This document shows, piece by piece, positions 8,809-64,000 of a stretch of 64,000 nt of DNA. Position 1 is the stretch's first letter; every line of letters begins with the position of its first letter. The notes beneath the pieces were generated by a model. The model saw only the letters and a list, made by a program, of their open reading frames with translations, had not been told where the DNA came from and searched no databases. A program made the position numbers and the translations under genes. Source of the DNA: Mesostigma viride (taxonomy: Eukaryota > Streptophyta > Mesostigmatophyceae > Mesostigmatales > Mesostigmataceae); the NCBI GenBank assembly GCA_009746045.1, contig RPFO01000213.1:8745814-8809813 (forward strand), in the 5' to 3' direction.

Positions 8809-8811
8809 GGC

Positions 8812-10080: not shown

Positions 10081-10085
10081 ATATT

Positions 10086-15885: not shown

Positions 15886-15899
15886 TTAAACATGCGTGT

Positions 15900-17518: not shown

Positions 17519-17836
17519 GCGCAATACCAAGAATACCGCGGGTCGATCCACTTCCGGCGTCTGGCCCGCGCGCTCATCTGGCTCATCATCTTCTGCTTCA
17601 TCGCCATCTCGTTTGCGTTCACGGGCCTGGCGGAGGAGACGTGCGCGTCGTCCATCATGGGCATCACGATGGGCTTCTTCGTCGCATTCATCGTCGTCAC
17701 ATTCGGCGTGCTGCTTGCAACCGACAAGTGGCCGCACAAGCTTGACCCGATGACGCCCGTCGTCGCCATCATCTGCATCCTCATGGTGCTCAACATGGTC
17801 TATCTGAGGCTCGACGTGGAGTGCAGCAGCTCACGG
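17519..17836 (+). CDS. PDE-like gene, exon 1 seen: three membrane helices
   Basis: 106 codons, phase 0 at both ends; acceptor CAAACAG directly after the CCCT tract, donor GTGGGT. It opens with a basic stretch (FRRLAR) followed by a helix [17 protein letters not shown], a second around [16 protein letters not shown] and a third around [17 protein letters not shown]. No start codon lies in this exon, so it is internal. Confidence 0.8.
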
Positions 17837-20800
17837 GTGGGTGCCGCATTGGAACGGAACGGAAGGGTACCCTGCTCGTGGCCTGGTGGGACTAGTGTAT
17901 ACATTAGGAAACAAGGAAAGGTGTGCTCATTAGAGATGTCATCACCCCAGCCGCGTTGCGGGTCGATTCTCTAACGTTACATTGTGCTGGATGCTTGAAC
18001 GTTACATTGTGCTGGATGCTTGAACGTTACATTGTGCTGGATGCTCTGACCATGGCATGGGTTTTCCCGTGGGAGATGGCCCGGTCGTAGTTGATGGATT
18101 CTCCATGGTTGGATACTCTAATGTACCGTTGTGTTTTACGTTGTGTGCGGCAGCGAACGGGCGGCGCCGCTGAGTAGAATCTAGAGTATAAGAGTATGTT
18201 CCCGCTATAGTGCCGTTCTCAGGGTGCGACAAGAAAGTCAATATATGCTGTGGCCGGCCGTGTGTCTTGCGGATGCTCTAGTGTTTGGGACTGCCGACAT
18301 GTTCCATTTAGGGTGATTCCTCGTGTTAACTGGCGGGAGAGCGATCACAGTAGTGGTACAACTGGACACTCCTGGCCTCTAGGAACACCTGCCTTGATCA
18401 TGCGAGGTTGTTTTTTAGCTACACCATCTAGGTCTCGACGAACGTTTTGCCAGCCATTTTTTTGAAGTCCACGGCTACACATCTCGACCTCCATTCATTT
18501 CCATCATCCTGAACGACTCGACAAACGCGGATAAGATAACAGCAGGCTTGAGCTACCTTGGTCCGGATTCTTCCAGATTTCTGGCCTGCGCTGGTTGTCT
18601 CTGTGATGTTGCTACTCCAATAATACATGTTTATGGTCATTTAAGGCACTTTTGCTTCAGATACCTGTAGCACTTTTGATTGTGCAGATGCATCCGCGCT
18701 AAACTGTCTTATTTGTAAAGGGAAGTGCCTCATGACTTGAGAGGTAAGCGCTAGGACATGAGTCTGGTGAATGGTCATTCCAAGGCTGAGGCCGTAATCC
18801 CTCACTGCGTCCCTTGTAACTGGAGATTAATTACTGTGCCGCAACGGAGGCTGGCTGGCGGCTCAATAGAACAATGGCTAAGCAACCCCTTGCTGGCAAC
18901 TGCCACCATTCTCTAATGCATATTTGTTGTCTCGCTCTGACATGCCTGCCCCCCCTAGAAGCTTTCCTCTCTTAGTCTTCAACTGCTAGCATTGGAGGTG
19001 CTGCAACACAGCCCCAGCATCATTGTTATGTCACCTGCACGAGTGGGTGGGGCTGGCATGTGGCACGTTCCACATCGCGTCGTGGTGTATGCCAGGAAAA
19101 GGGGAAGTGTAGCAGCTGTTGGGTTTTCCGAGTATCGAGGCTGGAACTCTACAAACATTTCATGCGTACGCCGCTTCAGTACACGGGGCCTGGAATGAAA
19201 GGAATGACTTGAATCCTTGCATTATTGCACTATGCGACACAGGACTTAGCTCTTCAGGCCTCGCTGTTTGAGTTTGCTAAACACAGGCAGCGCGCACACT
19301 TGCTGCCACCTGGGATTCCACCACCGCAGACGGTAGTTGACAATCCATGGACTCTCCATGGACAGTTCACTTACTGCCATATGCCCTTGCTCGCATCGTC
19401 GCTTCTTTTAATTGTTTCTGCTGTCAACGGCACCGTATGCTCGCCCCACCAATCACGGCCGGCTATCCTGCGCCCGGACGGCGACACCTGGCGCCCTCCT
19501 CCCCGTGTGGATCACAACCATCCTCATGCTGCCGACCGTTACATCCCCCCACGACGGCGCTTATGGGCTGAATCATCGGTCGCGGTCACCTCCACTCGCG
19601 TCCACGGGCATCCTATTCATGCATCGGGTCTTTCGGGTCATTACTTTCTGCCGCATGATTACCACCCTGGGGCCCACGCCGCGTTGCCACCATCGGCCGC
19701 CGCCTCCGTTCTTCACCCGCTCGCGCCGTGGTGCCACTGCGTCCGGCACCCTTCACCGGCGCCTTGTTACCGCGAACTTGCCGCCGATGCCGCCCATGCA
19801 TCTACTACCGCCCTGCAACGCATCTACTGGCACCCGGCAACGCATCGACTGCCACCTGGCATCATGCTCAACCTCACCGGCCTGGTGCCCGCAGTTTGCC
19901 AACCTGTTTGGCAACCGCGTGGAGGACGCATTGATCTACTTCACGTTCACGACCATGTCGATCATGTACTTCATTCACTGCATGTTCTCCATCCGGTACA
20001 TCCACTCGCTGCTCATGGTCGGCATGTTCGTGATCCTCTTCTTCGCGTGGCCCGTGCTGGGCGGGTCGTCCTTTTACGGGAACATCTCCCAGATGCGGCG
20101 CGTCGAGTGGCCGCGCGCGGTCCAGCACATGGCGTACTCGTGCGTCGGGTGCGTGTTCCTGGCGCTCAACCGGGAGCGGTCGGAGCGAAAGCACTTCCTG
20201 CTCAAGACCGCGTTCGCGCAGGGGTACAACGGGGGCAACGGGGGCGGAGATGGGTCCAACGCGGGCGGGCATCGCGTGTACTGGTCCATGGAGCCGCAGT
20301 CTGCGAAGAAGGATGAGTCGCGGAGAAGGGTACGTGTGCTAGGATGAGTAATGGAGAAGATGACGTGTGCTAGGATGAATGGCAGAGAAGGGTAGCTTTG
20401 GTAGGATGAATGGCGGAGGAGATGACGTTTGCTAAGATGAATGGTGGGGAAGGGTGGGTTTGCTAGGATTCATGGCGGAGAAGGGTGGGTTTGCTAGGAT
20501 GAATGGCGGAAAAGGGTAGGTCTGCTAGGATGACTTGGGTAGAATTGTACATTTGCTAGGGTGAAGGTACATTTGCTGGGATACCTGTACTAGGAATGCC
20601 CGGGCATGGCTGTGCCATGAAAAAATACCCTCAGAGTTCTCAAGTGACCCTGTGGCACGTAGGGACTGGTTTGCATTCACAGTCGCTTGGGTTGAGATTT
20701 CGGATGTGTGCCTCCCTAGGGCGATAACCGAGCAACCCTTGGATGTTATACCTTGGATAGTATTCAAGTTCTTGGGCTGTTTTCTGGCTTAGGATGACCA

Positions 20801-22834
20801 ACATACCGCACCGTAAATTTCTGGGTGAGCACGACCCCTGTATGGAAGCAAACTCAGGGAACAGGGAGGACTGAACCAGTTGACATAATAAAGATGTTAT
20901 TTGTTTGGATTACATGTTGTTATTGTTGTTAGAACACTAATAACATATAAAGTAATGTCATTATTATTACTACTGGTGTTATTCCAGGCAAGTACCAACA
21001 AGGCGGACTGCCTTGTGGGATTTTTCCTGCACTTGGCCGAAGTCCTGTCACAGAATGAACACTGCAACACTTGTACCTCCCTCTTCTGGCTCCCGCTTTT
21101 GGCTGCCTCTGTTGCTCCTGGCCATGCCTGCTGATGCTTGTGATCCCTATTCCTGGCCACAATGTCATTCGTTTATGCTGGCACACTCTGTTGGGCGAGT
21201 CATGGAATGCAAACTGCCCGAGTAGGTACTGCCTGCCCCTATCCCAGCAGTTGCTGGTCGCTATAGCTTGCCAATGCTTCTAGAACTAGAGAATCTAACC
21301 CCAACCGTGAGGGGTGGTCGTCGGGAAGCCTTGTTTCACGCTGATGCGAACAATATCCTCGGCTCCTGATCTCATCCCCCCTCGTGCGCTCCTTGCTGAT
21401 GCCAGCAACCAAAGAGCGACACCAACAGTCTACGCAAGTTCTCACTACCGGTCGAAGACAACCTGCTGGACATTGATACTGACACGTCACCAGGTAGGTT
21501 GGCCAACGTGTGTATGCCACTGGCACAGGCAAAGCATGTGATGAGCCAGGTCAACCGAACAAGTAGGCTTCTTTGTCTATATCACATCTGTATCACATCT
21601 AGTCTCTGTCACATCTATCTAGCATGCCTATGTAACAAGTAGGCTTCTTTGTCTATATCACATCTGTATCACATCTAGTCTCTGTCACATCTATACAGCA
21701 TGCCTATGTAACAAGTAGGCTTCTTAGTCTATATCACATCTGTATCACATCTAGTCTCTGTCACATCTATATAGCATGCCTATGTAACAAGTAGGCGCCT
21801 TGATCTGTTTTCTAGGGTAGGTCAGCCAGTGTGCACGCAACTGTGGTACCGGTACTTTTCCTGAGGAACAAGGTAGGTTGGCCTGAGCAGGGTAGCTTGG
21901 CCGATGTGCCACAGATGATGTCTGGTGCTTTGCAAGGGTGACTCCTTGTTCTGGACGCGCCACCTGATGGGCCAGGCAGGTCAGCGAATGCGCCCTTGAT
22001 TACAAGTACTCCTAAGTGCATGTTGCATGTCATTCCTCCGACATGTAACAGCAAGCTTCCTGGCTCACAAGCAAAGCACACTCACGCTGTCGTCCCCACG
22101 TGCCATCTGTGCCCTCTCTACTCGCTCTCCTTCCCACCTGTCCTCCCTACCTGCCTTATGTGCCTTGCCCTCCCCTCCCCCTCCCCTCCCGTACCTCCCT
22201 CCCCTCCCTTCCCCTCTCCTCGCCTCCCCTCACCTGGCCTCACCTCGCCTCGCCTCGCCTCGCCTCGCCTCGCCTCGCCTCGCCTCGCCTCGCCTCGCCT
22301 CGCCTCGCCTCGCCTCGCCTCGCCTCGCCTCGCCTCGCCTCGCCTCGCCTCGCCTCGCCTCGCCTCGCCTCGCCTCGCCTCGCCTCGCCTCGCCTCGCCT
22401 CGCCTCGCCTCGCCTCGCCTCGCCTCGCCTCGCCTCGCCTCACCTCACCTCCTCACCTCCTCACCTCCTCACCTCCCTCCTCTCCCCCTCCCTCCTCCAG
22501 AGCCCTCCAATGTGACGCTAGAGACCCCCCTGGAGGCCGCCATCGGCCTCGTGGACGGCATGCTCAACGGCAGCTGCCCGCCGTCCCAGCGCACGCTTCG
22601 GCAGCTGCGCGAGCTGCTGGATGCTGACAACCTGAACATGCCGCTGTTGCTCGAGCGGCTTCGGGTAGGTGCTGGGTGATTTGGAAAGGGATGGTTATTC
22701 TTGTGTGGGTGTGTGCCTGTGGGTGTTCGCGTTTCTATTTGTCCTTGTTAGACAACCTGGACATGCCGCTCTGTTGCGGAAGCGTCCCTCGTGTGCGTAA
22801 TTGCAACCCTCGACTGGCTCTAGCCAGTGTTGGC

Positions 22835-22928
<94 letters not shown>

Positions 22929-25900
22929 CTCGAAGCTCTCGAAACTCTCGAATCTCTCTCTCTGTCTCTCTCTCTCTCTGCCCCCCTCCTTTTCCTGCTT
23001 GCCCTCTTCTCCCCACACACTCTCTGCTGGCCCCCTCGCCCCCCCCCCCCCCCCGGTCTCTGCAACTGCAGCCCGAGGCACTGCTGCTAATCCTACAAAT
23101 ACTGCTCTTTATTTTTCCCGTCGCTCCACAAAAACAAACCTCAGGCCCACGGCGTGCCCGCACGACACGGGGCCTACCAATCCAGCACAATCGGCCGCAT
23201 CAGCCGCCAGACGTCGGTGCCCACGGGGAGCAGCGCCGGGGGGGGCAAGCTGGCACGCGGGGGCCGCCTCTCTGAGAGTTCGATCCCCGGCGACGGTGGC
23301 CCCTGGGGCATGTCCATCGACACCAGGCCTCTGGGATCGCCCGGGCCCGGTAACAGCCCTGCGATGATCACCCCCGGGGAGCACGAGCGGAAAGGCAGCT
23401 GGGACGGTACCGCCGCGTGGGACGCCTTCCTCGACCCCGAGGGGCTGAGTTGGCTCGCGGACGCGCTGTCCAAGCCGTGCGTGGATGAGCTCGAGGACCA
23501 CATGGAGGAGCCCGGCCGGCACCTCAAGGGCGGCATCTGCAACCTCATGGGCGTCGTCATGAATGAATCGTCGGTCGAGCCTCTGGTGCTAGGCAAGGGC
23601 GAGCTAAGGCTTGCAGACAGCAAGGGCGAAGGGCTCGTGTTTGATGCGATCGAGTCACCGTCATCCATGGCGGAGGGCATGCTGTCCCCCGTGGTCAACA
23701 GCCCGGTCCCGTTGATGGAGTCGGCGGTGTTGGGCAGCGTGTCGGGGGACAGCAGCTCGAGCAGCTCGTCGCAGTGGACGCTGCCGCCGCTCCTGCATTC
23801 GCTGGCAGGCGGGCGCATGGCCGTGGTGAACCAGCTACTGGCGACCACGCTGGGAAGGTGAGTGAGGGCCGGTGCCGTGTGTGATGGGTGACTGGGAAGT
23901 TAGGCGGGGGAGGGGGGGTTATAGCCTCGCACAGGCAATCATGTCAGTAGGACGTCAATTTTGTATAGCCAGGACCGTCGCCAGTGTTTGGGAGACAGCT
24001 TTTCTTGACCCCTTCATCTTTCTAGCATTTTCTTTCCCAGCTGCTTTCACTATCTCTTTTCCCCCTTCCCCTTTCCTCAAGCCCTCTCGCTTTCTTCTTT
24101 TAGGTTATGGCACCGTCTTGGGGTGATGTGTCCACGTGGGCGTTGTGTGGACTCATACAGATCCAGTTTACTTTTTTTGCCGTTTTCTTTCTGCCCAGGG
24201 CGAGCAAATTGGATCAGGATGGGGTATGATTCGCATTTTCAGCCACCAAGCTCCAAACTGTGCCCATCCCCAACCATGGCCCCTACCCTTACTACATGCT
24301 GCCCCAGTCGCCGCCCCTGCCAAAACCGTAACAACACCCCACCCCCACAACGTAACCCAGACCCAATCCCTAATGCTGACCCTAATCGCAACCCAAATCC
24401 AAACACCTACATCCCCACCTCAACCCCATCCAGGTGGGAGTTTAACGCGCACGAGCTGCAGTCGCTGACTGGCGGCAAGGCGCTCGCGGTGGTGGTCTAC
24501 GAGATCATCCGCAACGAGCGGCTCGTCCACAAGCTGGGGCTTGACCTGCGCCGCCTCCAGGGCTTCCTACTCGCGCTTAACGCCGGCTTCAACGAGCGCA
24601 ACGCCTACCACAACGGCACGCACGCGGCCGAGGTGGCCAACTCCTTCTACTGCCTCCTGCGCTGGTCCGGCGTGCGGGAGCTCCTTGATGACGTCGATGT
24701 CCTCGCTGGTCTGCTGGCATCCGCGATGCTCGAGTTTCGCCACCCGGGCCGCACCAACGACTCCCTCGTGCGCACGCGGCACAAGCTGGCGGTTCTGTAC
24801 AACGACCAGAGCGTGACCCAGAACCACGCGGTTGCGTCCGCTTGGCAACTCATGCTCGATGACCCGAGCGGCTGTGATTGCGTCGCGGGCTTTCCCCCGC
24901 ATCAGGCCACCCGTGTGCGGTCCCTCGTGCTGGACCTGGTGCTCGCGACCGACCTCGCCACACAGCACTTTGAGGTCCTCCGGCGCTTCAAGCGGCGCTT
25001 CCTCTGCGGCGACTGCCGCCAAGGGTGCAGCAAGACGGGCCGCCACGCGTGCTACCTGAGCTCGCCCGCCGTCCTCGAGGCTGTGAAGAGACAGCGAGAG
25101 AACCCGCTCAAGGGCAAGGGGGGCGGCAGGAGCCAGCGGCCGAGCAAGGGCAGGTTCTCGGATCACGGCGAGGGGGCTGTGGGGGGGGGGTCGCCCAGGG
25201 AGGAGGTGGCGAGCGTATCGATGGCGCCGGAGGGTCAGCCGCACCGCCTCCGGTTGTGCTTCAAGGACCGGAGGCTGCTGCTCATGATGGCGCTCAAGTG
25301 TGCGGATGTTGGGTACGTGCGATAGAAGTTAGAACCCTGATGGCGTACCACGGGTTGTGCTGTAGGAGAGAATACAATACATCCTGGCAATATATATATA
25401 TATATATCATAGGGTTGTACGATGAAAGACTTTACCCTCGTTCTCATGATGGCGATGAGTGTGCGGAAGTCAGGTGCATCCTGTGGAAAATTGTTGACAG
25501 GGTCATACTGCTGAAAAACGATTGGTTTGCGTGATTCCCTTGCGATGGTGATGGGTGCCAAGTGTCCGTGCGCATGTTGGGCACATGTGGAACTGTTGTT
25601 TGCGGTTGAAAGTCGCGGGATTGATGAGGTGGATGCCCAGGCGTGTAGTTCCATGCTCATGGCGGCCTTGAGTGTGGGGATGTTCAGTCCGCAAACAGCC
25701 CCCTATGCATGATCAGGTCACAGCAAACAACCACAGAAAGTAAACGATGGCCATGTCTGGGAAGGGCATGTACCTCCGCTGTATCCTTCCTCCAGAAGGT
25801 GTGCCCTACGCTAGCATTATTCCATGGTTTCACGCATGCTTGCTGTCAAAAGGGACAGCCGGGCACCACGCCAACCACCAAGTCAACCATGCCTGCTCAT

Positions 25901-28231
25901 TTGTACTGCATTCATGGCACTGATGGCTGCTGGATGTGTGCTGCCATACTCCTCCCTCTCTCCCCTTCCCCCCCCCCCCCCCCCCCCTCCTGTGCCCCCC
26001 TCCCTTCCCCCCTGCCACCTTCCGCCTACCCCCCTTCCCCACGCTACATTGCTCCCCAACCATGTGGTTACAGCCACCTGGCCAAGATCGGCCCCCTCCA
26101 CCGCAAGTGGGCGATCCAGCAACACTCCGAGCTGCAGAGGCAGGGCCAGCTAGAGCATGGGCTGGGCCTGAAACCATCACCTTTCTCCGACCCCACCACC
26201 AACGACCCGACGCAGCAAGGCGCGTCGCTCTACAACCATCTAGACGATGACTTCCAGCAGCCGTCACCTCAGCAACCGCATCCATATTCGCAGCGCAAGG
26301 ATGGCGTGGGCACAGGGGCGCCCTCGGCGGCAGCGGGGCACACACACTCGTTGCCCCATCCACCTCCAGGGAGCCCTACTCCGCACTGGCGGACGCCCGG
26401 GCCCATCCTGCCGGCGCCGCAGCTGCCCCCCCTCGCGCTCGATACCGCCTTCCCCCCCTCGGTCAAGGTCAGCACGAACCCGATGTATCATCATACGCGC
26501 ACGCTGTCGGACTCGGACAGCGTGCTCTCGGGCAGCCTCGTCGCGTCACCCTACGCGAGCAGGGCATCCCACGACGGCGTGGTCCCTCCCTCGGGCGACA
26601 TCCTGAGCGGATCTGGGAACGATTCGACGTCCTCACTCCCCCCGGAGCTGAACCTTCACTCAGCCACGGCGGCGCCCTCTGTGTCTGAGACAGCCAGCCT
26701 GGCCGCCGGCACTGGCACTGGCAGCGTGATTGTGTCTCCCCCCTCGCCCACGCCCCCTCTCTCGACCTCGCTCGCCCGTTTCCAGATGTCGTTCTTTGCG
26801 TTCGTCGGCCTCCCCCTGTTCAAGGCCTGGTCAGCCGCGTTCGAGGCGCACGAGAGCACGTCGGGGCGCGAGGTCATGGACAACCTAATGGACAACTACA
26901 ACACATGGCTGCGGCTCGTGGAGGTCTCCGCGGCGCACGATGGCGCCCATGCAGGGCAGCCCCAAGGAAACCGACGCGTGTCCCTGGAAACTCACCACGG
27001 GAGCATGACCATGCATCACGGGGGCAACAACGTCGCCTTGGGGGGCCCACCTGGCGGGCTGATTGACCATCCGGCGGCCCACGTGATGGGCCGGATCCAC
27101 GTGCCGGCGTCCAGCTCAAGCAAGTCCCAGCATTCCTCGCTCCACTCCATCCATCCGGAGATCAAGGACCTGTTGGAGACCGCCCACAGCCGTGACGGCA
27201 GCGAGAATGGCCATGGGAACGGCCATGCCCTCACGGGGGACAGATCCAGCAGTTCCCCATTTGATGCCCCTTTCCTGGTCCCTGGGGCGACCATGTCGAA
27301 CACCGAGGGGGACCACTCGGCCCTCTCCTCGCCCACGTATACCCCCCGCGGCGCCGCATACCAACGCAGCCTGAGCAGCGTCAAGATCATGATGTCGCTC
27401 TCACGGCCCGGGACGCCCCGCCAGGTGCCCCTTCCGGGGCCGCCGCAGGCTCCGGGCTACACGCCGCTGCCCCCACAGGCGCATTCGCCCACGCAGCCCC
27501 CGGCGCCGCCCCCGCCCTTATCCCACCGCGGTGCCACCCGGAGCGAAGGGAGCCGCCTCATGCCAGCTGTCCCGCTGTCGCTCGACACGACCGCGCTCCC
27601 GGGGCCAAAGGGCTCCATCACCCCGATCCCGGATGCGAGCAGTCTCTACATGCACGGGACGCCCAACGGGATCTACCCCGCTGCTCTCCCCCCCCACCTG
27701 CGTCTCCGCACCACGGGTGGGGCCACCGCGAGTGCTGACCTCGGCTCTCCGACCGGGTATTTCGATGGCAAGGCCTCTGGTGCCCCTGGGTGGGTCCCTG
27801 CGCGCGGCCCCTACGCGGCGGTGGAGGGCGATGACGCGCTCTCGGTGGAGGACAGCAACCGCAACGAGGAGGATTCCCCCCTGGCCGCCTTCAGTGAGCG
27901 GAGCGTCTCGTCCTGGGTGGACGCGCTCCCTGGTAGCGGGACCGGGCGGCACCGCAAGGCTAGCAGTAGTGGCGGGAACGGGGCGGGCGGTAGCAACGGG
28001 GCCCCAGTATCTGAGGCCAAGCCGGGCGGACGGCATGGCGGCACGGGCGCTTTGTCCAAGATCCGGAACAAGCTGTCCAAGCTGCCCTCGGCGGACAAGC
28101 GGAAAGGCCTCGGGATGGTATCTGCACCGTCGGAGGCATCGCTTGTGCAGGACAACAATGGGGAGAGGCCCCAGGACTCGAGCGTGGCGCTGGATGACAT
28201 GGAGAATGGGGACCTGGGCCGTATGGCATAA
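17519..28231 (+). CDS. Membrane-anchored class I cyclic-nucleotide phosphodiesterase-like protein (5' end missing)
   Basis: Six exons are read: 17519-17836, 19895-20329, 22503-22664 (or from 22501), 23145-23857, 24434-25312 and 26074-28231, about 1,550 codons. Exons 1-2 hold about six hydrophobic helices; exon 3 has a helical linker of the kind that precedes PDE domains; exon 4 is low-complexity; exon 5 and the start of exon 6 form the PDE catalytic domain (YHNGTHA, HPGRTN, YNDQSV, ATD, KCADVG, then Q with F three residues later); the rest is a long Ser/Pro/Gly-rich tail. The family hydrolyses cAMP or cGMP. Here the metal-binding HD pair reads LE, and ENHH reads QNHA, so activity is doubtful. 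Two insertions interrupt the domain. The phase from exon 2 to exon 3 needs either acceptor CCAGAG or donor GTGTGC at 20334. No start codon was found; earlier exons should lie upstream of the CCCT tract. Confidence 0.85.
17837..19894 (+). other. Intron between PDE-like exons 1 and 2
   Basis: Includes three 25-bp copies of AACGTTACATTGTGCTGGAT at 17973-18047 and a dispersed repeat at 18559-18612 that recurs at 29148-29196. No further exon supported. Confidence 0.6.
19895..20329 (+). CDS. PDE-like gene, exon 2 seen: further membrane helices
   Basis: 145 codons in phase 0; acceptor GCCCGCAG, donor GTACGT. Hydrophobic runs around [39 protein letters not shown] and [13 protein letters not shown] complete a roughly six-helix module, then comes a basic, Gly-rich cytosolic stretch. 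The last 19 bases form part of a 31-bp tandem repeat that runs on into the intron. An alternative donor at 20334 would give phase 1 and join cleanly to an acceptor at 22500. Confidence 0.8.
20311..20558 (+). repeat. 31-bp repeat straddling a splice donor
   Basis: About eight units of the type GGATGAATGGCGGAGAAGGG; the first unit is the last 19 coding bases of exon 2 plus the first 12 intron bases. Confidence 0.85.
21558..21800. repeat. 76-bp tandem repeat, three copies
   Basis: Starts AACAAGTAGGCTTCTTTGTC at 21558, 21634 and 21710, with a partial fourth at 21786. Lies in the intron before PDE-like exon 3. Confidence 0.85.
22236..22445 (+). repeat. (CTCGC)n array
   Basis: About 40 nearly perfect 5-bp units followed by a CT-rich tract and the acceptor of exon 3. 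Confidence 0.95.
22501..22664 (+). CDS. PDE-like gene, exon 3 seen: linker helix
   Basis: Follows a long pyrimidine tract (CTCGC array, then CCTCCAG). Reads [14 protein letters not shown] and an acidic helix [22 protein letters not shown], like the segment N-terminal to many PDE catalytic domains. Donor GTAGGT. In phase 0 the coding part begins at 22503; starting at 22501 requires a phase-1 upstream donor. Confidence 0.75.
22839..22926 (+). repeat. (CT)n(GT)n microsatellite
   Basis: Adjacent dinucleotide runs in the intron before PDE-like exon 4; another CT run and a poly-C run follow up to 23054. Confidence 0.95.
23145..23857 (+). CDS. PDE-like gene, exon 4 seen: low-complexity linker
   Basis: 713 nt, phase 0 in and phase 2 out; acceptor AACCTCAG, donor GTGAGT. 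Rich in Ser, Gly and Pro, with a more ordered part around [19 protein letters not shown] and a C-terminal helix [16 protein letters not shown] leading into the catalytic domain. No motif recognised beyond composition and position. Confidence 0.8.
24434..25312 (+). CDS. PDE-like gene, exon 5 seen: catalytic domain core
   Basis: 879 nt; one base completes the previous codon, phase 2 out; acceptor CATCCAG, donor GTACGT. Family motifs in order: catalytic His in YHNGTHA (24606-24626), where the second His is a metal ligand; the HD metal motif replaced by LEFRHPG (24729-24749); [11 protein letters not shown] in place of YNDxSVxENHH (24798-24830); ATD (24945-24953); KCADVG, with the final metal-ligand Asp at 25305-25307. 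Between ATD and KCAD lies an insertion with the spacing C-x2-C-x3-C-x7-C (25005-25052) and a Gly/Ser/Lys-rich run. Confidence 0.9.
26074..28231 (+). CDS. PDE-like gene, last exon: end of catalytic domain and long tail
   Basis: Acceptor GGTTACAG; one base completes Gly, giving [18 protein letters not shown], a clean match to the helix after the metal Asp in PDEs. [11 protein letters not shown] follows, then about 190 low-complexity residues, then [17 protein letters not shown], which carries the invariant purine-binding Gln (26783) and the Phe clamp. The remaining 450 or so residues are Ser/Pro/Gly-rich with a basic patch ([19 protein letters not shown]) near the end. Stop TAA at 28229. Confidence 0.85.
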
Positions 28232-29793
28232 AGGAGGAGGGGAGGAGGAGGAATGGGAGCGTGCGGGGGTCGAGGAGGAGGGCACCTGTGTCCTGTAATG
28301 TACAGCTTTTACTGTCCTGGCGCGCACTGGTTACTGCGCTTGCTGTAAGCAGGAGCAAGGAGGAGGGGCTGGGAGCAAGGAGGAGGAAGGAGGGAGGAAA
28401 AGGGGGGGTGTATAGGGAAGGAATGCTTCAAAGGAGGACTGTGGGCCTTGTGATGTGCATCCATCGTGGTCCCTTAAGGGAGGTGATCCTTGTCACACTT
28501 GGCATGTGCCTAGGTCCCACGGGGGTGGCCCCAAGTGCATGCGGAAGCGAGTTGACGCTGCCGTTGCCTGGGCCTGCCCATTCCTGGGGGTAGTGTATCC
28601 TGCAAATGGCAGGGTGACAAGATGGTCAAAACTAGGCTCGCGCCCCGACGGCGTGATCAGAACGGGAGATGCTGAGAATTTGTCGGGGTTGCTTGTGGTT
28701 GAAGTGCTTGGCGCAATATATTCGAATTTATAGAAGCTAGAAGGTGGAGGGCCAATCGTTCCTGTGTCCTCCCACGGCCAGGTCCTGATGAGCACTTTGA
28801 TGTATTTATGACGAACAGTGTTGGCTGATTCTCTAAGAAATTGCACATGTTCATGGCTAACTGTCTTGATGGCCAACAGTCTTGATGGCCAGGTGCCTGC
28901 ATGGTGGTAGCCCAACAGGGTATAATTGATACTTGTATTTCTGGTATAGGTTTCCCAGATCCTCCTTTGCTGAAAGTATTTGGTACCGTTCTGCACATGG
29001 GAAATGCATGTGAAATAGTTTTTGAGCGCTGACCTGCTGGCATGGGCACCCTGAGCTGGTGGCGTGACCCCTAGCGGACACGGATGCATGTTCAAACCCC
29101 TCATGTGATAGTTCTAGTTGCCTATATGTTTACAAATATACTATGTATGGTCCGGATTCTCCCGATTTCTGGCCTGCGCTGGTTGTCTCCTTGATACTAT
29201 GTATGATATTGTTGGCTTGCTCCTTGCATGTCATGGTGTCAATTCTTTTCTTTACGGTCCTTCCTCTTTTTCTGGCTTTCCTGCTGTTGCATGCCGATCT
29301 CATCTCCGTAATTTATCATTCTCAATAAAATTATCTGATTATTGATAATGATAAATTAGGGAGGTACGTAAGAGCGGCTGGCATGCAACATCAGGAAAGC
29401 CCTGAAAAGAAGAACCCTACAGAAAATAAGCTCATGACACCTCTACTTTTCTTTAGGCTGGGGCCAGATCGGGGCAACAATAACGGGGATGATGCAGACG
29501 ATATTTGTTTAAACTTTTGTGTAATTATTTTTCTAATGAGATTAGCGTAGTACTCCATGGCATGCCTTTGCGCATGACACGCAAGTACTTACTTACTTAC
29601 TTATCGGGGCAACAGCTCTAACCTTTTCACACACAGCAGCCCAAACAAAATTCCGGGAGCATTAACCAGAAATGCATTTACATTGACACTACAGTGGTCA
29701 GATTAGCATAAATCAAACTGTGCAACAATTCCCTACTTTGCGAGGGCATGGCTTCGTCATAGATGAATAAGACAAAAAATGACCACTGCCCAT
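28232..29793. other. Convergent 3' flank of the PDE-like and RETICULATA-related genes
   Basis: TGTAA words near 28296 could serve as an algal polyadenylation signal, but this is weak. Contains the dispersed repeat at 29148-29196 and the foldback at 29225-29445. Confidence 0.4.
29225..29445. repeat. Imperfect foldback of about 100-bp arms
   Basis: AATTTATCATTCTCAATAA faces TTATTGATAATGATAAATT across about 12 bases near 29333. Outward, TTTCCTGCTGTTGCATGCC matches the complement of GGCATGCAACATCAGGAAA, and TGTCATGGTGTCAA matches TCATGACACC, so the hairpin extends well beyond the core. Confidence 0.65.
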
Positions 29794-29987
29794 TTACTGC
29801 ACGCCAAAATAGCGCGCCATGTCGATAAACTGCTCCCCTCCGATCACGTTGTTGGCAAACCGCAGCACGATCGTGCCACCGTACGAGAGCGGTGGGAAGC
29901 GGCGGCCGATGAACGAGTTCTCCAGCACGCGCTCGAGACCGTTCAGCGTCTGGTACCGGAGGTTGGACGAGACGCCCATGAAGAGTG
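29794..29987 (-). CDS. RETICULATA-related gene, exon 8 (terminal)
   Basis: 194 nt; acceptor CCCTCGCAG; stop TAA at 29796-29794. Encodes the most conserved part of the family: LFMGVSSNLRYQTLNGLERV, then VLRFANNVIGGEQFIDMARY and FGVQ at the end. Confidence 0.92.
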
Positions 29988-32900
29988 CTGCGAGGGAAGG
30001 GCAAAGGAATCGGACAGGGCGATATGTCAGCGGCATAGTAGCGGAAACGAAAGCAGCAACGAAGCAGCAGCCAATCAGCGGCCAATCAGCAACCAAGAAG
30101 CGACCGAGCAGCAACCAAGCAGCCACCGAGCAGCAACCTAGCAGCAACCGAGCAGCAACCAAGCAGCAACCGAGCAGCAACCGAGCAGCAACCGAGCAGC
30201 AACCGAGCAGCAACCGAGCAGCAACCGAGCAGCAACCGAGCAGCAACCGAGCAGCAACCGAGCAGCAACCGAGCAGCAACCGAGCAGCAACCGAGCAGCA
30301 ACCGAGCAGCAACCGCGCAGCAACCAAGCAGCAACCGAGCAGCAACCGAGCAGCAACCGAGCAGCAACCAAGCAGCGACCAAGCAGCAGCCGAGCAGCAA
30401 CCGCGCAGCAACCGCGCAGCAACCGAGCAGCAACTGCGCAGCAACCGAGCAGCAACCGAGCAGCAACCAAGCAGCAACCAAGCAGCAACCAAGCAGCATC
30501 CAAGCAGCAACCAAGCAGCAACCAAGCAGCAACCAAGCAGCAACCAAGCAGCAACCAAGCAGCAACCAAGCAGCAACCAAGCAGCAACCAAGTAGCAACC
30601 AAGCAGCATACAAGGGACAGGGCAGTGAGACAATGAATACGAGGCGGCTGGCATGCTAATGCCTTTGCATGACTAAGATCAGGTTTCTGTAAGGAAGACC
30701 AGTGTATGTACACGAGGGGGCATGTGCAGGGCGGCGGAGCAGGGAAAATGCGGGAAGTGCAACCGGCCAACAAAAGCACAGCACGGAAGCAAAGCATATA
30801 TTCTGGGCAAAACGTCCTAAGAGTTCTGCAACGTCTGCTCTGCGTCTGCGCCCAACCGGACTTTTTTATTTCAAAAGAAATGCAGTCGTACTTGTATCAA
30901 TTATTCTGCACAAACGTGTTCGCCTACCACCTCCCAATTACTGCACCATTCAGCGGTTCCATGCCATAAAAATATCAGGATCAGACAGGCGGGAGGGCAC
31001 CCTAGGCAGCTCCCGCGGTTCCATGCCATTTCTCAAAGACAACCGGCCTGGGTCACGCTACGGCATTCACGCATAATGTATCCCGAATTAATAAAATTAA
31101 TTAATTAATTAGACTCGTGTATCCCATTATTATACTCACGCATCGTGTATCCCGCATTGGTGGTCTTATCTGACAGTCAGCACGTGCGTTCCATCACAAG
31201 TGAGCTGCATTGAAGAATGAGCGGCTATTACATAATTGACCAACAAGAAAACCATTTACAACGAACCATGTGAACTGAGCGGGCCATCTCGCGGCCCATC
31301 TCCAATGTGCCCACCCATCCCATGCGCGCCCATCCCATCCGCATGCACCCCGCAGTGTCCTGTTCTGGCCGGTCCACGTCAATGAGAGTTTACTTTACCG
31401 ATGACGCATGCCCATGGCGCTACCGGCCCCACGCGCCCCCCATGCCCTCCACTTACCCCACCCGCCCCACTTTCCCAACACGGCCTGCTTACGCCATGCG
31501 CCCCACTAACTCCACAGTGCACATTCACCCCGCTTACCCCAAACGCCCGCCGTCTTTAGCACGGGTGGCGGCACCACCTGCTTGGCTTCCTTGGCCGGCT
31601 TGGCCCCGTCCTTGGCCTCGCTCTTTTTGTTGCCCGTGAGCGCCCTGCAGGTTTGACGGGAAGCAGGCGGTGGCCATTGGAGTCAAAGGTTATACTAGGC
31701 AATCAAATCTCATGACTGCGTCACGGAGCCTAAATCCTCAATGGAACAGATTGCGGTGAGGGTGGATGGCAGACAGGCTTTTTGGTGGTCAATGTGGACA
31801 GTATGGCCAGGTGCCAGCAAACCACGCTCGCGTCATCATGCGCACCCACCGGCAACGCTTTTTTCCCATGGTGGTCACCCACTATTTGCTGCCTGCCTCG
31901 ACGATGTACAGGCAACTTGGGTTTCCCATAAACGTGGCCACTCACCGGCGCACAGCGATGAATCCGTTGGCAAGCGTCTGACCCGCGCCGCCGCACACCA
32001 AGCCGATGACCGCATACTCCCCGCCCTGCCACCCACATGGTCGCAACATTCCGAGCAGACCCAGACCACCACAAGGCCTCCAAGGGATGGAGAGTGAGGC
32101 GTTGTCAGGTCGGCCACATCGTACAAGGACGATTCTTGACACACGATGGGCGACTTTTGATAAATGTTCACTATTGTTCAAGTACCACCAATATTGCCTG
32201 ATCTACTGGTGTTGTTTGAGTGAATCCAGCCGTATGAGACGAGAATAAGAAAACAAGCTGGGACTCTGCGCCGGCAAACGCCACGTCATACGAGGTCCAA
32301 GATATCGCCACAAACACAGTCCATGACATCCAGCAGCTTCCTATACACCCAAAACATAACTGCCCGGGGGATGCATCCCCCACTGGAGCCGCGGCCTGCC
32401 TGCCCACTTCAATATCACGTCCACACAAGCAACAGTGTGCTACTTGGAACAAAAGAGGAGAGATATGTGAGCCAAGCATGTTGGCGCAAAGGTCTGAGGG
32501 TGGATTGAGTTTACTTTCATTGCAGGGAAAACATTTTGGCTTATTGATTTTGTTGAACCACACCAACTTGAAATAGCACAAGCCACCTTTGCAGAGATGG
32601 TGGACGTCCTCGGCTCCATAAACAAATCACATATACTGGCATTGTGTGACGTACCTTTACAAAGATCGTGGACGTCCTCTGTGCCACTGTGTACGGCGCC
32701 TTGCCGATGGGCGTCTTCTCAAAGCAGCTGCCGACAAATGTCACAAGGGGGCAAGGGGGGCGTAGCAAGGAAGCACAGCAAGCGACCGCAACAAGGGGGG
32801 AAAGGGTTCCGTGTGGTAGGTTTTTAGTGGGGACCTCCTTTGGCCTGCCAAACCGGCCTGCTATATCTATGCAGTTCTTCACGCACGATGCAACACCGCG

Positions 32901-35900
32901 CCACGTGCTGTGGCACACACCTTCCCGGCAAACTCTTGAGGAAGGCAGAGAAGGCGTTGGACTTGGCGGCGGAGGGCCGTGCCCCCGCGAGGGAGGCCAC
33001 CGGCGCCATCATGGTCACCAGTGCGACGTCCATGACGAGGCCGACCAGCACATCAGAGAAGTAGAACTCGAGCTGGTAGACGCGCCAACGATTCGACAGC
33101 AATGCGCCAGCAAGGCATGACAGAACCATGCCGCCATCCAAGGCATGGCGCGAGCAAGGCACGCCGCGGCACCCAGGACAGCCATCCAGACCGCGAATGA
33201 GTTGTCGTCAGCAAGGCATGGCACAATCATCCACGCAGGGCATGAGGTGAAAGGCATGCCGCCATCCAAACCGCCATCCAAACCGCCATCCAAACCACCA
33301 TCCAAACCGCCATCCAAACCGCCATCCAAACCGCCATCCAAACCGCCATCCAAACCACCATCCAAACCGCCATCCAAACCACCATCCAAACCGCCGTCCA
33401 AACCACCATCCAAACCGCCGTCATCAGGGGACGGGTGCATCGCAAGTGCATGGGACCTACCACGCATGGCATCCCTCATGCGGGGCAAGACAAGGGGCGA
33501 TGGATGCATGGCAACCATCACATCGGCCATGCAAGGCAAGGCATGGCGCTTGCGGCGAGAGGCAAGCAGCCACAGGCAAACACCACGTGTGCAAGTGAGT
33601 CCGTTGCTCCACTGCTCAACAGCGGTTCAACAAGACCACGGCCGCAATGATTTAGTAGACCTAGAGTGAATAAAGTCATACTAGTACTAGTACTACGGTA
33701 CATAAAGCCATTGATTTGAATCACTGCTAGACAAATGATTAGCAAGTGACTAGCACAAACTAATAATAATCGTCGTGATACCCGCCAATCACTGCTAGAC
33801 AAATGATTAGCAAGTGACTAGCACAAACTATTAATAATCGTCGTGATACCCGCCAATCACTGCTAGACAAATGATTAGCAAGAGACTAGCACAAACTATC
33901 AATGATCGTCATGATACCCGCCAATCACTGCTAGACAAATGATTAGCAAGTGACTAGCACAAACTATTAATGATCGTCGTGATACCCGCCAATCACTGCT
34001 AGACAAATGATTAGCAAGTGACTAGCACAAACTATTAATGATCGTCGTGATACCCGCCAATCACTGCTAGACAAATGATTAGCAAGTGACTAGCACAAAC
34101 TATCAATAATCGTCGTGATACCCGCCAATCACTGCTAGACAAATGATTAGCAAGTGACTAGCACAAACTATTAATGATCGTCATGATACCCGCCAATCAC
34201 TGCTAGACAAATGATTAGCAAGTGACTAGCACAAACTATTAATAATCGTCGTGATACCCGCCAATCACTGCTAGACAAATGATTAGCAAGTGACTAGCAC
34301 AAACTATTAATGATCGTCATGATACCCGCCAATCACTGCTAGACAAACGATTAGCAAGTGACTAGCACAAACTATTAATGATCCTCATGATACCCGCCAA
34401 TCACTGCTAGACAAATGATTAGCAAGTGACTAGCACAAACTATTAATAATCGTCGTGATACCCGCCACCCGCATCGCGACTCGCCAGCATCTCACCTCAT
34501 CCCAGAAATGCTCCCCCCGCTTGGTGACTTCGGCGTACGTGCAGCAGACTGAGTCAATCGCGACCTGGGCGGGCCAAGAAGGAAAACAGAAGGGCGGACC
34601 AAAGAAGGAAAGGACCAGGGGGGATCAAAGAAGGAAAGGACAAGGGGGGATCAAAGAAGGAAAGGAGAAGGGCGGGCAAGGAGGAAAAGTAGAAGAAGCA
34701 AACGAGTGAAAACAGGAGGATAAGCGATACAAGACATGGCAGGAGAAGAAGCAGGAAGAGGAGCAGACAACCCGAGCAGGAATGCAAACACGGACAAAGA
34801 CGAGTGGAAGACCGAGCACTGCTTTCCTGTTGCAAAAGCGGGCTGCCTGTACTACCTGCCTCTACTATCTGCCTCTACTATCTGTCTCTACCATCTGCCG
34901 CTACTATCTGCCTCTTCTATCTGCCTCAACCATCTGCTGCTACGATCTGCCTCTAATATCTAATCTGAGCGCTGTGCACGCCAGCATGGTTGAAATCCTG
35001 CCTCCAGCAGCGATGAGATGTCCCATTCCGACACATCAGCGCTATGCTCCCTTGAAAGGGCAAACGATCACCTCAGGGCGACGGGGCACATGACAACCTC
35101 AGGGCAGGAGGGCTAACAATATCCTCAGGGCAAGGGGGAACAGGATCACCTCAGGGCAGGAGGGCTAATAATAACCACAGGTGAAGACCGCTGAGCTCTA
35201 GCCAGCCAGGCAACCGTACCTGCACTCATGGCGACAATCAATGGCCTACATATATGATTAAGGCAGCCTTGCTAGATAAAATGCTCAAACATGTCGTATG
35301 CATCCTATCAAACATGTCTAATGCATCGGCATGGCAAGAAACCATAACGGCCGATGCCTCATGGGACCCATTTGTAACAAATGGGTGCCACACTAATGGG
35401 TGATTGCACGGGAAGCCATGTTCTCTGCATTCTCGTGCAGAAAGCGGAAGTATGCGATACGCGATGGTGAGGATAAGGGAAACACAGCAAACCGGATACA
35501 GCATGCTCTCGTCCGTCACCTGCCCATTCCACCCCCCCAAACCCCCCCCACCCCCACCCCACATGCACACACGAATGCAATGAAGCACCAGCCAATCGCT
35601 GCACATATATCAAGGAGAAAGCACAGATATGACCCTGAAGAGGCTCATTAATTTAAGGAGTGTTCAACTACTGCTGTAGCGATGACTCTCCCATGTCAGC
35701 AATCACTCGCATGAATGAGTGCGCAATGATTGAAGTGTGACAACAGGCGCATTCCTCGGACGAAACCTTGTACAAGCGATATACATATCAACCATTAGCC
35801 ATGGATACAAGCCATGACCATCTTCCACCCCATGCCAGGCCTCTTTTGGTATGATACATCGTGGTGGTGCAGGTGCACCTTGTGCACCCAGAGTAGGTGG

Positions 35901-38042
35901 CAGTTTACATTCCCGCACCTGCAGGTTGTAGCCCAGAATGTATTAAAAACCATATGCCCCTTTCAGGGATATGAGTTACATATACTCCCCATGGAGATAT
36001 GTTCTTAATTCATTAATGGGAATCTACCTCAGACAAGACCTTGCAGAGATAATTCAACTCTAATAAGGTACTGATAAATACTCGGCATGTGCATACCTCG
36101 GACAGGACTTTAAAGAGGTACTTTGGATCGGCCACCATGCGGTCCCTTATGATAGTGCCGACCTTGCACAAGGGGCCCACAAAGGGTTGCGCCTGGTGGT
36201 GGTGGTGGTGTGTGTCCGGGGGGGGGGGGGGGGGGGGGAGTACAAACGCACCATCATATGCGTGTTTGGTTTCGTGTTTATGTGTGATTGTCGGTACATA
36301 ACTGTTTGTGGATAGTTGTTCGTGTTTGGTTGTTCATGGGCAGTTGTGGGGAAGAGGAAGGCAGGCAGGCGGGAAGGCAGACAGGAAGGCAGGAAGGCAG
36401 GAAGGCAGGAAGGCAGGAAGGCAGACAGGAAGGCAGGAAGGCAGGAAGGCAGGAACACAGGCAGGAAGGAAGGCAGGAAGGCAGGCAGGAAGGCAGGCAG
36501 GTAGGCAGGCAGGAAGGCAGGCAGGAAGGCAGGCAGGTAGGCAGGCAGGAAGGCAGGCAGGAAGGCAGGCAGGAAGGCAGGCAGGAAGGCAGGCAGGCAG
36601 GCAGGAAGGAAGCCCGGAAGGCAGGCAGGCAGGCAGGCAGGAGGGAAGACTGAAGATGGGGAGAAGGCAAGTGGAGGACCCGAAGACAGCGCGATGGAAA
36701 GGGCTAGCAGCGTCGCACCCATCACAATGCACCCATCCACCATAAGCGAATATACTGCAGTGCTCGAACGGCACCTATGTGTGTGCTATTACTCGTGTGC
36801 CATCATATTTTGTGGCACACACATGGGGGCCCATAAGTCATAGCACACGCAATGTAATATATATGTTATAGCGCCTACATTGTAGAAATCCATCACAGCA
36901 CACACATTGTCTGGCACAGATGGTAGGAGTAGCACACATGTTGCAGCACACACAATCTCATACTCCATAGCTGCTAGCTTCCCTGTTCGTGTGCAGTGAC
37001 TCCCTTCAAAAGGATGAGAAGCTGGTGGATGATGGAGGAAGCCTTCGGGTAGAGGCAGCCCTCGTTCACCTGTGGGTAGCAGCCCTCACTAGAGTCCTCA
37101 TAAAGATAGCCCCCCGCACACTATAATCCTCACCACAACTTCGTGCACAATCGTGAGGAGGCACAAAGCGCACGGGCAGGGCAGGGCAGGGCAGGGCAAC
37201 ACGAGCGCCTTGCAACAACCTGAAAAAAGCAACAGCTTTCACGTTAAACTTCCTACACAAAGGGGAGCAGACAACAGTCGCGCAGTGATGGAATGCCGGC
37301 AAGGGATCAGCCAAGCTAGACGCGGAGTAATACAACGTGTGGCAATTGCTTCGAAATGGAGTAAATCCGTGTTTAAGGGCCAGACATGCCACATCCTCCA
37401 GTTGTCACGTGGCATTAGCACACGTACAGCAGTGAGGGAACGTTTCATACTCCCGGTCACAATTCCTTCACTAGACGACATTATAGGGAAGAATGCGTCT
37501 ACCTGGACGGCGAGGTAGGATTCGAGCCATGCCTTCTGAAGCTTTCCTTGCTGAGCGAGCGCGATGACGTCAGCCGGCAGTTTTGCATTCTTTGCAGCAG
37601 CAGCGGCGACCACTTCTGCATAAGTAAGGTATTCAATTTTCTTCGGTTCGTTACCATCGCCGTCACCCCCTCCGCCCCCAGAGGACCCGCCGCTTTTGCC
37701 GCCTCCGCTGCCCCCGTCCCCGCTATCAAGTGTGGCCTCTCCAGAAGAGCTCGCGGCTCTGCGAGATGCGCTTGATCGCCCTTTACCCACGGACGCCAAG
37801 GACGAAAGCCAATTCAGTCCAAAAGCCCCTGATGGTGGGCCAGATGCTGACGGTAAGTTGCAACTGGCCACTACGCGCGACGCATTGTTGCAGAGCGAGC
37901 GGGTGGACAACGACCCATGAGCTGGCGAAGGAAAGGCCAGCTTGGCGGGCGAACAAATCAGCGAAACATTTTGTCTTAAATTCTTCAAATTTATGTCGGA
38001 ATTCGCCACAATGCGGGTGCTATGCATGACAGCGACCGCCAT
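29794..38042 (-). CDS. RETICULATA-related (DUF3411) chloroplast envelope protein, complete, 8 exons
   Basis: Exons (plus-strand numbers): 37503-38042, 36097-36192, 34496-34564, 32921-33072, 32655-32727, 31946-32025, 31538-31644, 29794-29987. They total 1,311 nt and keep one open frame of 436 codons plus stop. All junctions are GT..AG and phases agree throughout. The start at 38042 has a strong context (GACAATGGCG) and opens a Ser/Arg/Ala-rich, acid-poor stretch typical of a chloroplast transit peptide. Family landmarks in order: RDRMVADPKYLFKVLSE, AEVTKRGEHFWDE, a membrane helix VLVGLVMDVALVTMMAPVA, YTVAQRTSTIFVKGGEYAVI, GQTLANGFIAVRR, and the C-terminal block ALFMGVSSNLRYQ..NGLER..FIDMARYFGVQ. 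Plant members sit in the chloroplast inner envelope and affect leaf reticulation and plastid function; the biochemical role is not established. Convergent with the phosphodiesterase gene and divergent from the 40.5-kb gene. Confidence 0.9.
30057..30608. repeat. 11-bp tandem repeat (AGCAGCAACCR)
   Basis: About fifty units of CGAGCAGCAAC and CAAGCAGCAAC, lying in the last intron of the RETICULATA-related gene. Long frames across it are artefacts. Confidence 0.95.
31538..31644 (-). CDS. RETICULATA-related gene, exon 7
   Basis: 107 nt; acceptor ACCTGCAG, donor GTAAGC. Encodes a Lys/Ala-rich loop (SEAKDGAKPAKEAKQ) and PPPVLKTAGVW, which joins in phase to ALFMGVSSN. Confidence 0.88.
31946..32025 (-). 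CDS. RETICULATA-related gene, exon 6
   Basis: 80 nt; acceptor GGTGGCAG, donor GTGAGT. Encodes a glycine-rich membrane helix, EYAVIGLVCGGAGQTLANGF, matching the GxxxGLVGxxxxNxxI helix of DUF3411. Confidence 0.88.
32655..32727 (-). CDS. RETICULATA-related gene, exon 5
   Basis: 73 nt; acceptor GTCGGCAG, donor GTACGT. Encodes CFEKTPIGKAPYTVAQRTST, equivalent to the xxFxxxxYTxxQR segment of the family. Confidence 0.88.
32921..33072 (-). CDS. RETICULATA-related gene, exon 4
   Basis: 152 nt, phase 0 in and 2 out; acceptor TACCAG, donor GTGTGT. Encodes the first clear membrane helix (DVLVGLVMDVALVTMMAPVA) and FLKSLPG. Confidence 0.88.
33257..33422. repeat. 12-bp tandem repeat (CCATCCAAACCG)
   Basis: Fourteen units, in intron 3 of the RETICULATA-related gene. 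Confidence 0.95.
33712..34462. repeat. 68-bp tandem repeat, eleven copies
   Basis: Unit includes CAATCACTGCTAGACAAATG and GACTAGCACAAACTATTAAT; copies are over 95% alike by eye. Ends 35 bases from exon 3 of the RETICULATA-related gene. Confidence 0.95.
34496..34564 (-). CDS. RETICULATA-related gene, exon 3
   Basis: 23 codons, phase 0 both ends; acceptor CGCCCAG, donor GTGAGA. Encodes IDSVCCTYAEVTKRGEHFW, matching the AEVxKRGxxFW signature of the family. Confidence 0.9.
34565..36096. other. Intron 2 of the RETICULATA-related gene
   Basis: Purine-rich AAAGAAGGAAAGGAC repeats (34603-34690), CTGCCTCTACTAT repeats (34852-34965) and CCTCAGGGC repeats (35070-35180). Echoes of the exon 2 end lie at 36024-36048 and 35749-35778. 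No extra exon supported. Confidence 0.6.
36097..36192 (-). CDS. RETICULATA-related gene, exon 2
   Basis: 32 codons, phase 0 both ends; acceptor ACCACCAG, donor GTATGC. Encodes KVGTIIRDRMVADPKYLFKV, matching the RERLLADPxFLxK block of the family. Confidence 0.88.
36358..36645. repeat. AGGC/AGGA tetranucleotide-derived array
   Basis: Mixed GGAAGGCA and GGCAGGCA units in intron 1 of the RETICULATA-related gene; a G-run precedes it at 36218-36238. Confidence 0.93.
37503..38042 (-). CDS. RETICULATA-related gene, exon 1
   Basis: 180 codons. Transit-peptide-like first 60 or so residues, then Ser/Gly-rich low complexity, then a helix with LPADVIALAQQGKLQKAW that matches the N-terminal part of DUF3411 proteins. 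Donor CAG|GTAGAC, phase 0. An in-frame upstream ATG at 38171 exists but gives a poorer context and a less transit-like start. Confidence 0.85.
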
Positions 38043-40435: not shown

Positions 40436-40479
40436 CTGCACCATCCTTGTGTGTATGCTCTTGGTCATAAACATGCGCC

Positions 40480-63865
<23,386 letters not shown>

Positions 63866-64000
63866 GTGAGTGGCTGGGACGTGGCTATATCGTATACTGT
63901 ACTTGCACAAGAGGACCGGGAGCACTCCAAGCGCGTTGCTTGATGACCACGGTGGTACTCGGATGTGATTGCATGAGGACCGGGAGCACCTCAAGCAGCG

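What the first reader, a model, noticed from the sequence alone, without database searches (positions are those of the whole stretch)
17519..64000. Junction echoes: exon ends plus splice sites are duplicated into neighbouring introns across all three genes
At about half of the exon-intron boundaries I could define, the last 15-40 exon bases plus the first bases of the 5' splice site recur inside the following intron, either as clean tandem arrays (PDE-like exon 2, flagellar exons 5, 8, 10) or as diverged single copies (PDE-like 3 and 5; flagellar 3, 6, 7, 9, 12, 13, 14, 15; RETICULATA-related 2 and 5). Acceptor-side copies also occur (flagellar 12 and 13). The pattern is on both strands and in unrelated genes. 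It is known that tandem duplication of exon sequence containing AG|GT can create introns and that repeats slip; a genome-wide habit of duplication anchored on existing splice junctions is, to my knowledge, not described. It would lengthen introns, supply spare donors and allow small in-frame exon extensions.
Basis: partly seen in the sequence, partly recalled or inferred. Interest (0 to 1): 0.88.

Follow-up and report, generated by a model that had tools for sequence, protein, structure and literature searches.

The report
Local DNA duplications spanning exon ends
In this alga many introns hold an old copy of the end of the exon before them; similar small local duplications are common all through the introns sampled, so exon ends are probably not targeted but are where such copies are tolerated and stay readable longest.

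Summary
The echoes are real. With models for the three genes (PDE, RETICULATA-like, FAP92 homologue; 23 introns), exon end plus donor recurs in its own intron at 14 of 23 junctions, against 6 of 506 pairings with other introns. In 79 dynein heavy-chain (DHC) introns elsewhere in the genome it recurs at 23 donors, against 26 of 782 mismatched pairings.

Anchoring of duplication on junctions is not needed to explain this. Arbitrary points inside the same introns give 253 of 1050 hits. In a matched comparison donors exceed such points 1.75-fold (DHC, p=0.04) and 1.9-fold (all, p=0.002). A simulation in which only the exon side is frozen by selection predicts 1.2-1.7-fold, and the data do not differ from 1.7-fold (p=0.52). 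Where BLAST finds donor-spanning copies, 16 of 19 introns have the intron head copied too, as tandem duplication requires. Acceptors carry fewer copies than donors (17 against 36 of 101). Copied donors are not specially preserved.

Reading: frequent local tandem duplication, filtered by splicing and by unequal decay. The high window rate (13 of 22) and short copied exon tails leave a weak junction effect open.

The parts
20310..20565 (+). PDE exon 2 tail (20310-20329) plus donor at 20330, start of a 31-bp tandem array running into intron 2
   Evidence: TRF; echo score 22
18075..18170 (+). weak, long, gapped echo of PDE exon 1 tail (source 17749-17847, donor 17837)
   Evidence: score 19, gapped; copy junction reads GG, not GT
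22751..22794 (+). echo of PDE exon 3 tail (source 22626-22666, donor 22665)
   Evidence: score 22
25413..25475 (+). echo of PDE exon 5 tail, 61 exon bases (source 25252-25314, donor 25313)
   Evidence: score 24
32585..32618 (-). echo of RETICULATA-like exon 3 tail (source 32653-32686, donor 32654)
   Evidence: score 22
31449..31467 (-). weak echo of RETICULATA-like exon 5 tail (source 31530-31548, donor 31537)
   Evidence: score 13; level reached by 11 of 506 mismatched pairings
41828..41861 (+). first echo of FAP92 exon 3 tail (source 41791-41823, donor 41814); a further copy follows, seen by eye
   Evidence: score 19; sequence
43536..44037 (+). 60-bp array, 8.4 copies, beginning in FAP92 exon 5 (donor 43550)
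   Evidence: TRF; score 26
45875..45921 (+). echo of FAP92 exon 6 tail (source 45532-45578, donor 45573)
   Evidence: score 29; weak overall match (62%) into the intron head
46520..46576 (+). echo of FAP92 exon 7 tail (source 46364-46420, donor 46415)
   Evidence: score 22
55088..55452 (+). 111-bp array, 3.3 copies: FAP92 exon 8 tail plus intron head (donor 55117)
   Evidence: TRF; score 35
56518..56548 (+). echo of FAP92 exon 9 tail (source 56409-56439, donor 56433); a further copy carries part of the intron head
   Evidence: score 27; second HSP
56898..57073 (+). 62-bp array, 2.9 copies: FAP92 exon 10 tail plus intron head (donor 56908)
   Evidence: TRF; score 22
61263..61296 (+). echo of FAP92 exon 13 tail (source 61091-61124, donor 61122); another copy in between carries the intron head (spacing 84 bp)
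62772..62821 (+). echo of FAP92 exon 14 tail, 47 exon bases (source 62609-62658, donor 62656)
   Evidence: score 22
63899..63940 (+). echo of FAP92 exon 15 tail (donor 63866; intron runs out of the window, read in L051)
   Evidence: score 17
59683..59707 (+). acceptor-side echo upstream of FAP92 exon 12 (exon starts 59756); end approximate
   Evidence: score 19, starts 73 nt before the exon
60580..60616 (+). acceptor-side echo upstream of FAP92 exon 13 (exon starts 60962); end approximate
   Evidence: score 20, starts 382 nt before the exon

Best explanation
The echoes are by-products of frequent local tandem duplication in the introns of this genome. Units of about 30-350 bp are duplicated all along introns and, less evenly, outside genes. 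When a unit straddles a donor, its copy carries the exon tail and donor into the intron. That exon bases arrive with the junction attached is geometry: a local tandem duplication can put exon sequence into the intron only by crossing the junction. Shown: copy density in introns and exons, intron-head homology in most BLAST-level copies, exon part better conserved than intron part, fewer copies at acceptors than at donors. Inferred: (1) the first donor stays in use, so donor-spanning copies are tolerated; (2) part of the acceptor-spanning copies place a usable AG upstream, change the mRNA and are purged; (3) the exon side cannot drift, so exon-tail copies stay recognisable longer than intron-intron copies, which gives the appearance of anchoring.
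For: Arbitrary intronic points give 253 of 1050 hits against 36 of 101 donors; DHC alone 161 of 689 against 23 of 79. Along introns 13-34% of 30-nt windows have a copy within 350 nt, against 0.5% for other introns. Long coding stretches 7% at score >=14 and none at >=20, introns 30%. Of 19 introns with a BLAST-level donor-spanning copy, 16 have homology at least 15 nt past the junction. Exon part 85%, intron-head part 77% identical, exon higher in 12 of 16, p=0.02. Simulated excess from one-sided constraint 1.2-1.7-fold; matched observed excess 1.75 (DHC) and 1.92 (all), not different from 1.7-fold (p=0.90, 0.52). GT kept in 19 of 30 copies. Donors 36 against acceptors 17 of 101, p=0.004.
Against: The matched donor excess (1.75, 1.92; window 2.4) lies at or above the top of the simulated range. 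In a stricter test of the intron head after the best echo only 7 of 16 window echoes reached p<0.05, of which PDE 3 is a TG repeat and FAP92 14 is borderline and out of register; the best FAP92 9 copy matches at 29 of 31 bases and its flank does not align. Copied exon tails are short: 6 of 36 exceed 60 nt, against 49 of 118 intronic copies with score up to 45 (p=0.009; medians 32.5 and 49.5 nt). Outside genes the background is uneven: 28% and 22% in two stretches, but 8% when the 6272-10507 satellite block is left out, and 16% in flanks of seven repeat loci. Acceptors are not below matched intronic points overall (ratio 1.02, p=0.94), and donor against acceptor is not significant in DHC alone (p=0.19). 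No transcripts were available.
Confidence: 0.7

Rival explanations
1. Duplication is anchored on splice junctions: some process tied to the donor (bound nascent RNA, R-loop, replication stall) copies the last 20-60 exon bases plus donor into the intron.
For: Donors exceed matched intronic points 1.75-fold in DHC (p=0.04) and 1.92-fold over all (p=0.002); 13 of 22 in the window; copied exon tails short, median 32.5 nt; some copies without alignable intron head (three of 19 introns).
Against: The excess is not distinguishable from the 1.7-fold that one-sided constraint can give; unmatched DHC comparison not significant (p=0.27); intron head copied in 16 of 19; copies common along whole introns.
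Confidence: 0.17
2. The copies are kept as spare or alternative donors that permit small in-frame exon extensions.
For: 30 of 36 copies keep GT when the query includes donor bases, but that query selects for it.
Against: Exon-only query: GT in 19 of 30 at mean identity 0.84, so about 21 expected by drift. Copy distance modulo 3: 9, 13, 14. The extension at FAP92 exon 8 meets a stop after eight codons.
Confidence: 0.03
3. The introns themselves arose by tandem duplication of exon sequence holding AGGT (Rogers model).
For: Exon-derived sequence lies in the introns; the model is established in print (PMC4974935, PMC3443670, passages read).
Against: Echoes take up a small part of much longer introns and sit near the donor; 16 of 19 carry intron head, so the intron was there before the duplication.
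Confidence: 0.04
4. Assembly or sequencing artefact in repeat-rich DNA.
For: The window has a 25-N gap beside a 7.3-kb CCTCCCTT array.
Against: 23 of 30 exon-only copies are 70-90% identical to their exon, each different, in the window and in 13 gene stretches on 11 contigs.
Confidence: 0.02

Closest known systems
[quoted passage not shown] Gao and Lynch 2009; Hellsten 2011; reviewed in PMC3443670)
   Same: Local tandem duplication moves exon sequence with splice signals (passages of PMC3443670 read; Gao and Lynch, Hellsten and Rogers known only as cited in the papers read).
   Different: There the duplication makes a new intron; here existing introns are lengthened and nothing seen here indicates a new splice product.
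Potato RdRp intron, tandem duplication across an intron-exon boundary (PMC4974935, abstract and passages read)
   Same: The duplicated unit straddles an existing splice boundary.
   Different: It straddles the 3' boundary and created a new intron; most cases here straddle the 5' boundary.
Tandem-duplication introns in Drosophila (Lehmann 2010, PMC2891723, passages read)
   Same: Exon sequence with a proto-splice site is duplicated in tandem.
   Different: Duplication lies within the coding sequence and seven introns are proposed; here copies span existing donors in about a third of the introns sampled.
Tandem arrays and human introns (Zhuo 2007, seen only as a reference in PMC3488318)
   Same: By its title it links introns with tandem arrays.
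   Different: Not read; no comparison possible beyond the title.
Satellite DNA of chlorophyte genomes (PMC8226300, passages read)
   Same: Tandem repeats with units over 10 bp are counted as part of these genomes.
   Different: The passages read give genome totals and do not count arrays that begin in exon ends.

Membership tests
Local tandem duplications straddling a splice donor | Exon tail and intron head repeated together at one spacing | tested here: met
   16 of 19 introns with a BLAST-level copy; stricter test 7 of 16 window echoes
Local tandem duplications straddling a splice donor | Copies also common away from junctions | tested here: met
   253 of 1050 arbitrary intronic points; outside genes uneven, 8-28%
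Junction-anchored duplication | Copies at donors beyond the intronic background after allowing for constraint | tested here: inconclusive
   Matched excess 1.92-fold; against 1.0 p=0.002, against 1.4 p=0.11, against 1.7 p=0.52
Junction-anchored duplication | Copy ends at the donor, intron head absent | tested here: not met
   Intron head present in 16 of 19; absent or unalignable in the rest and in several window cases
Intron gain by tandem duplication | Intron absent before the duplication | not testable with these tools
   No related genome available; the copied intron head argues that the intron came first
Selected spare donors | Copied GT kept above drift | tested here: not met
   19 of 30, about 21 expected

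The most novel reading that the evidence does not exclude
Splice donors, or the transcription and splicing machinery on them, promote a class of short duplications that take about 20-60 nt of exon tail and the donor into the intron, on top of the intron-wide duplication background; this would explain the short copied tails, the copies without intron head, the excess at the top of what constraint predicts and the high rate in this window.
Probability: 0.17. Interest if true: 0.8.

Novelty: new member of a known kind. Interest (0 to 1): 0.42.

Why it matters
It shows how a duplication-rich genome can give a strong appearance of splice-site targeting through two filters: exon copies remain readable longer, and donor duplications are met more often than acceptor duplications. 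About a third of the introns sampled (36 of 101) carry a donor-spanning copy, so such a genome is a natural test of how the spliceosome chooses among repeated donors and of how introns grow.

Tried and rejected
Considered and dropped: special retention of GT (it looked nearly complete when the query held donor bases, but not with an exon-only query); a model in which only exon tail plus GT is copied (intron head found in 16 of 19). A non-genic background from hand-picked array-poor stretches (4.9%) was biased low and was replaced by whole stretches (28% and 22%; 8% without the satellite block). tRNA and Rfam scans of the window gave nothing. Searches for more dynein exons with PF12780 and PF08393 did not complete. 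Seven paper searches returned, in their listings, no description of donor-spanning copies at this frequency; the held library lacks most subscription papers, so this is weak evidence of absence. PMC3488318: only reference-list entries seen. PMC11228838: passages seen, not used.

Rows dropped: of 86 introns modelled, 51 were kept. Of 198 modelled in the later set (178, less 9 re-modelled, plus 29), 79 were kept after requiring flanking exons of at least 45 nt, introns of at least 100 nt, GT start, a supported junction peptide and no open read-through. FAP92 intron 7 (8.6 kb, N gap) was left out of the tests on 22 window introns. The matched test used 94 of 101 introns. The last stretches fetched (K, M, N) gave no net donor echo and lowered the DHC rate from 23 of 68 to 23 of 79.

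It shows a significant donor excess over intronic points and no acceptor deficit against them, so I lowered the best explanation from 0.8 to 0.7 and raised the anchoring reading from 0.1 to 0.17. I also corrected the number of contigs, the range of the intron profile, two part coordinates and the uneven non-genic background.

Full report
What was checked. The window is 64 kb of a eukaryotic genome of 440 Mb in 2243 contigs, by gene content a flagellate green alga (my inference). Three genes were modelled: a cyclic-nucleotide phosphodiesterase (PF00233), a RETICULATA-like protein (PF11891) and a homologue of the flagellar protein FAP92 (PDB 7n6g_3E, E=1e-17). The FAP92 frame is open through all 15 exons. 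The models give 23 complete introns.

A 40-nt query (30 exon, 10 intron bases) matches its own intron at score 14 or more in 14 of 23 cases and other introns in 6 of 506; exon-internal windows match in 0 of 189 and acceptors in 2 of 23. Alignments show exon ends of about 10-61 nt (and one doubtful 88) repeated with the donor. FAP92 exon 12 and one RETICULATA-like case are at or near chance level; exon 15 was confirmed after fetching the rest of its intron.

Genome sample. The first 51 introns gave 21 donors and 8 acceptors at score 14 or more; mismatched introns gave 29 and 23 of 2550. The final, stricter set has 79 introns from 13 gene stretches on 11 contigs: donors 23, acceptors 15, mismatched 26 of 782.

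Is the junction special? The spanning test at arbitrary points inside introns gives 161 of 689 in the DHC set and 92 of 361 in the window; over all 101 introns donors 36, acceptors 17, arbitrary points 253 of 1050. A profile of 30-nt windows gives 13-34% through introns, somewhat higher in the first 100 nt, 33-41% over the last 30 exon bases, and zero by 90 bases into the exon; on the acceptor side 10-14% around the junction and 18-33% more than 60 nt inside. By a 40-nt window measure introns give 30%, long coding stretches 7% and none at score 20, flanks of seven repeat loci 16%, and two non-genic stretches of the window 28% and 22%, but 8% in the first when its satellite block is left out. 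So the background is clear in introns and uneven outside genes.

A matched comparison, intron by intron with equal target lengths (94 of 101 introns usable), gives donors 0.36 against 0.19 for intronic points, 1.92-fold, p=0.002; DHC alone 1.75-fold, p=0.04; window 2.4-fold, p=0.02. Acceptors do not differ from intronic points over all (ratio 1.02), are below them in the window (0.34, p=0.04) and not different in DHC (1.42, p=0.24).

Why donors look enriched. In copies with both parts alignable the exon part is 85% and the intron-head part 77% identical (16 introns, p=0.02), as expected if the exon cannot drift. Simulating such one-sided constraint with the same detector predicts a 1.2-1.7-fold excess, depending on the age range assumed. 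The observed excess is at the top of that range: not different from 1.7-fold (p=0.52), nor significantly from 1.4-fold (p=0.11). Anchoring is thus not required, and a modest amount is not excluded.

Geometry. BLAST self-comparison finds donor-spanning copies in 19 of 73 introns and acceptor-spanning ones in 4. In 16 of the 19 the homology runs at least 15 nt past the junction, as tandem duplication requires. Results the other way: a stricter test of the head after the best echo succeeded in 7 of 16 window cases, one of them a TG repeat and one borderline; and copied exon tails are shorter than intronic copies of similar score (medians 32.5 and 49.5 nt). The shortness may reflect selection against long exon-tail copies that make the second donor competitive, or a real bias of the mechanism, or arrays that extend leftwards only in introns; the data do not decide.

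Function. Copied donors are not specially kept (19 of 30 GT with an exon-only query) and copy spacing shows no frame preference. The smaller number of acceptor copies (p=0.004 over 101 introns; not significant in DHC alone) would fit the textbook preference for the first AG after the branch point (recalled, not from a call). The potato RdRp case (PMC4974935, abstract and passages read) shows an acceptor-side duplication changing gene structure.

Place in the literature. Tandem duplication across splice sites is known (PMC3443670, PMC4974935, PMC2891723; passages read). Seven searches of an incomplete library listed no report of donor-spanning copies at this frequency. The finding is best filed as a frequent, well-resolved instance of a known process, with a modest junction effect still open.

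Noticed in passing
window 47601-54967: 7.3-kb array of CCTCCCTT inside FAP92 intron 7, followed by a 25-N gap (54943-54967); the intron's true length is unknown.
   Followed up: no
window 15899-17509: 1.6-kb TCCC-type array directly upstream of the PDE exon at 17519.
   Followed up: no
window 18302-18607: Interspersed repeat of about 300 bp in PDE intron 1 with 39 further listed places at 82-90% identity across the genome (a lower bound, only 40 candidates scored).
   Followed up: partly
window 6636-8773: 82-bp satellite array, 26 copies, 94% matches, outside the three genes.
   Followed up: no
L010, L012, L013, L014 (contigs C2022, C458, C1624, C1909): Some dynein heavy-chain genes have open frames of 1647-2441 codons while paralogues are cut into exons of roughly 60-450 bases; whether these are intron losses or, for small contigs, other organisms is open.
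   Followed up: no
101 introns: Exon tails in donor echoes rarely exceed 60 nt (6 of 36); unexplained.
   Followed up: partly
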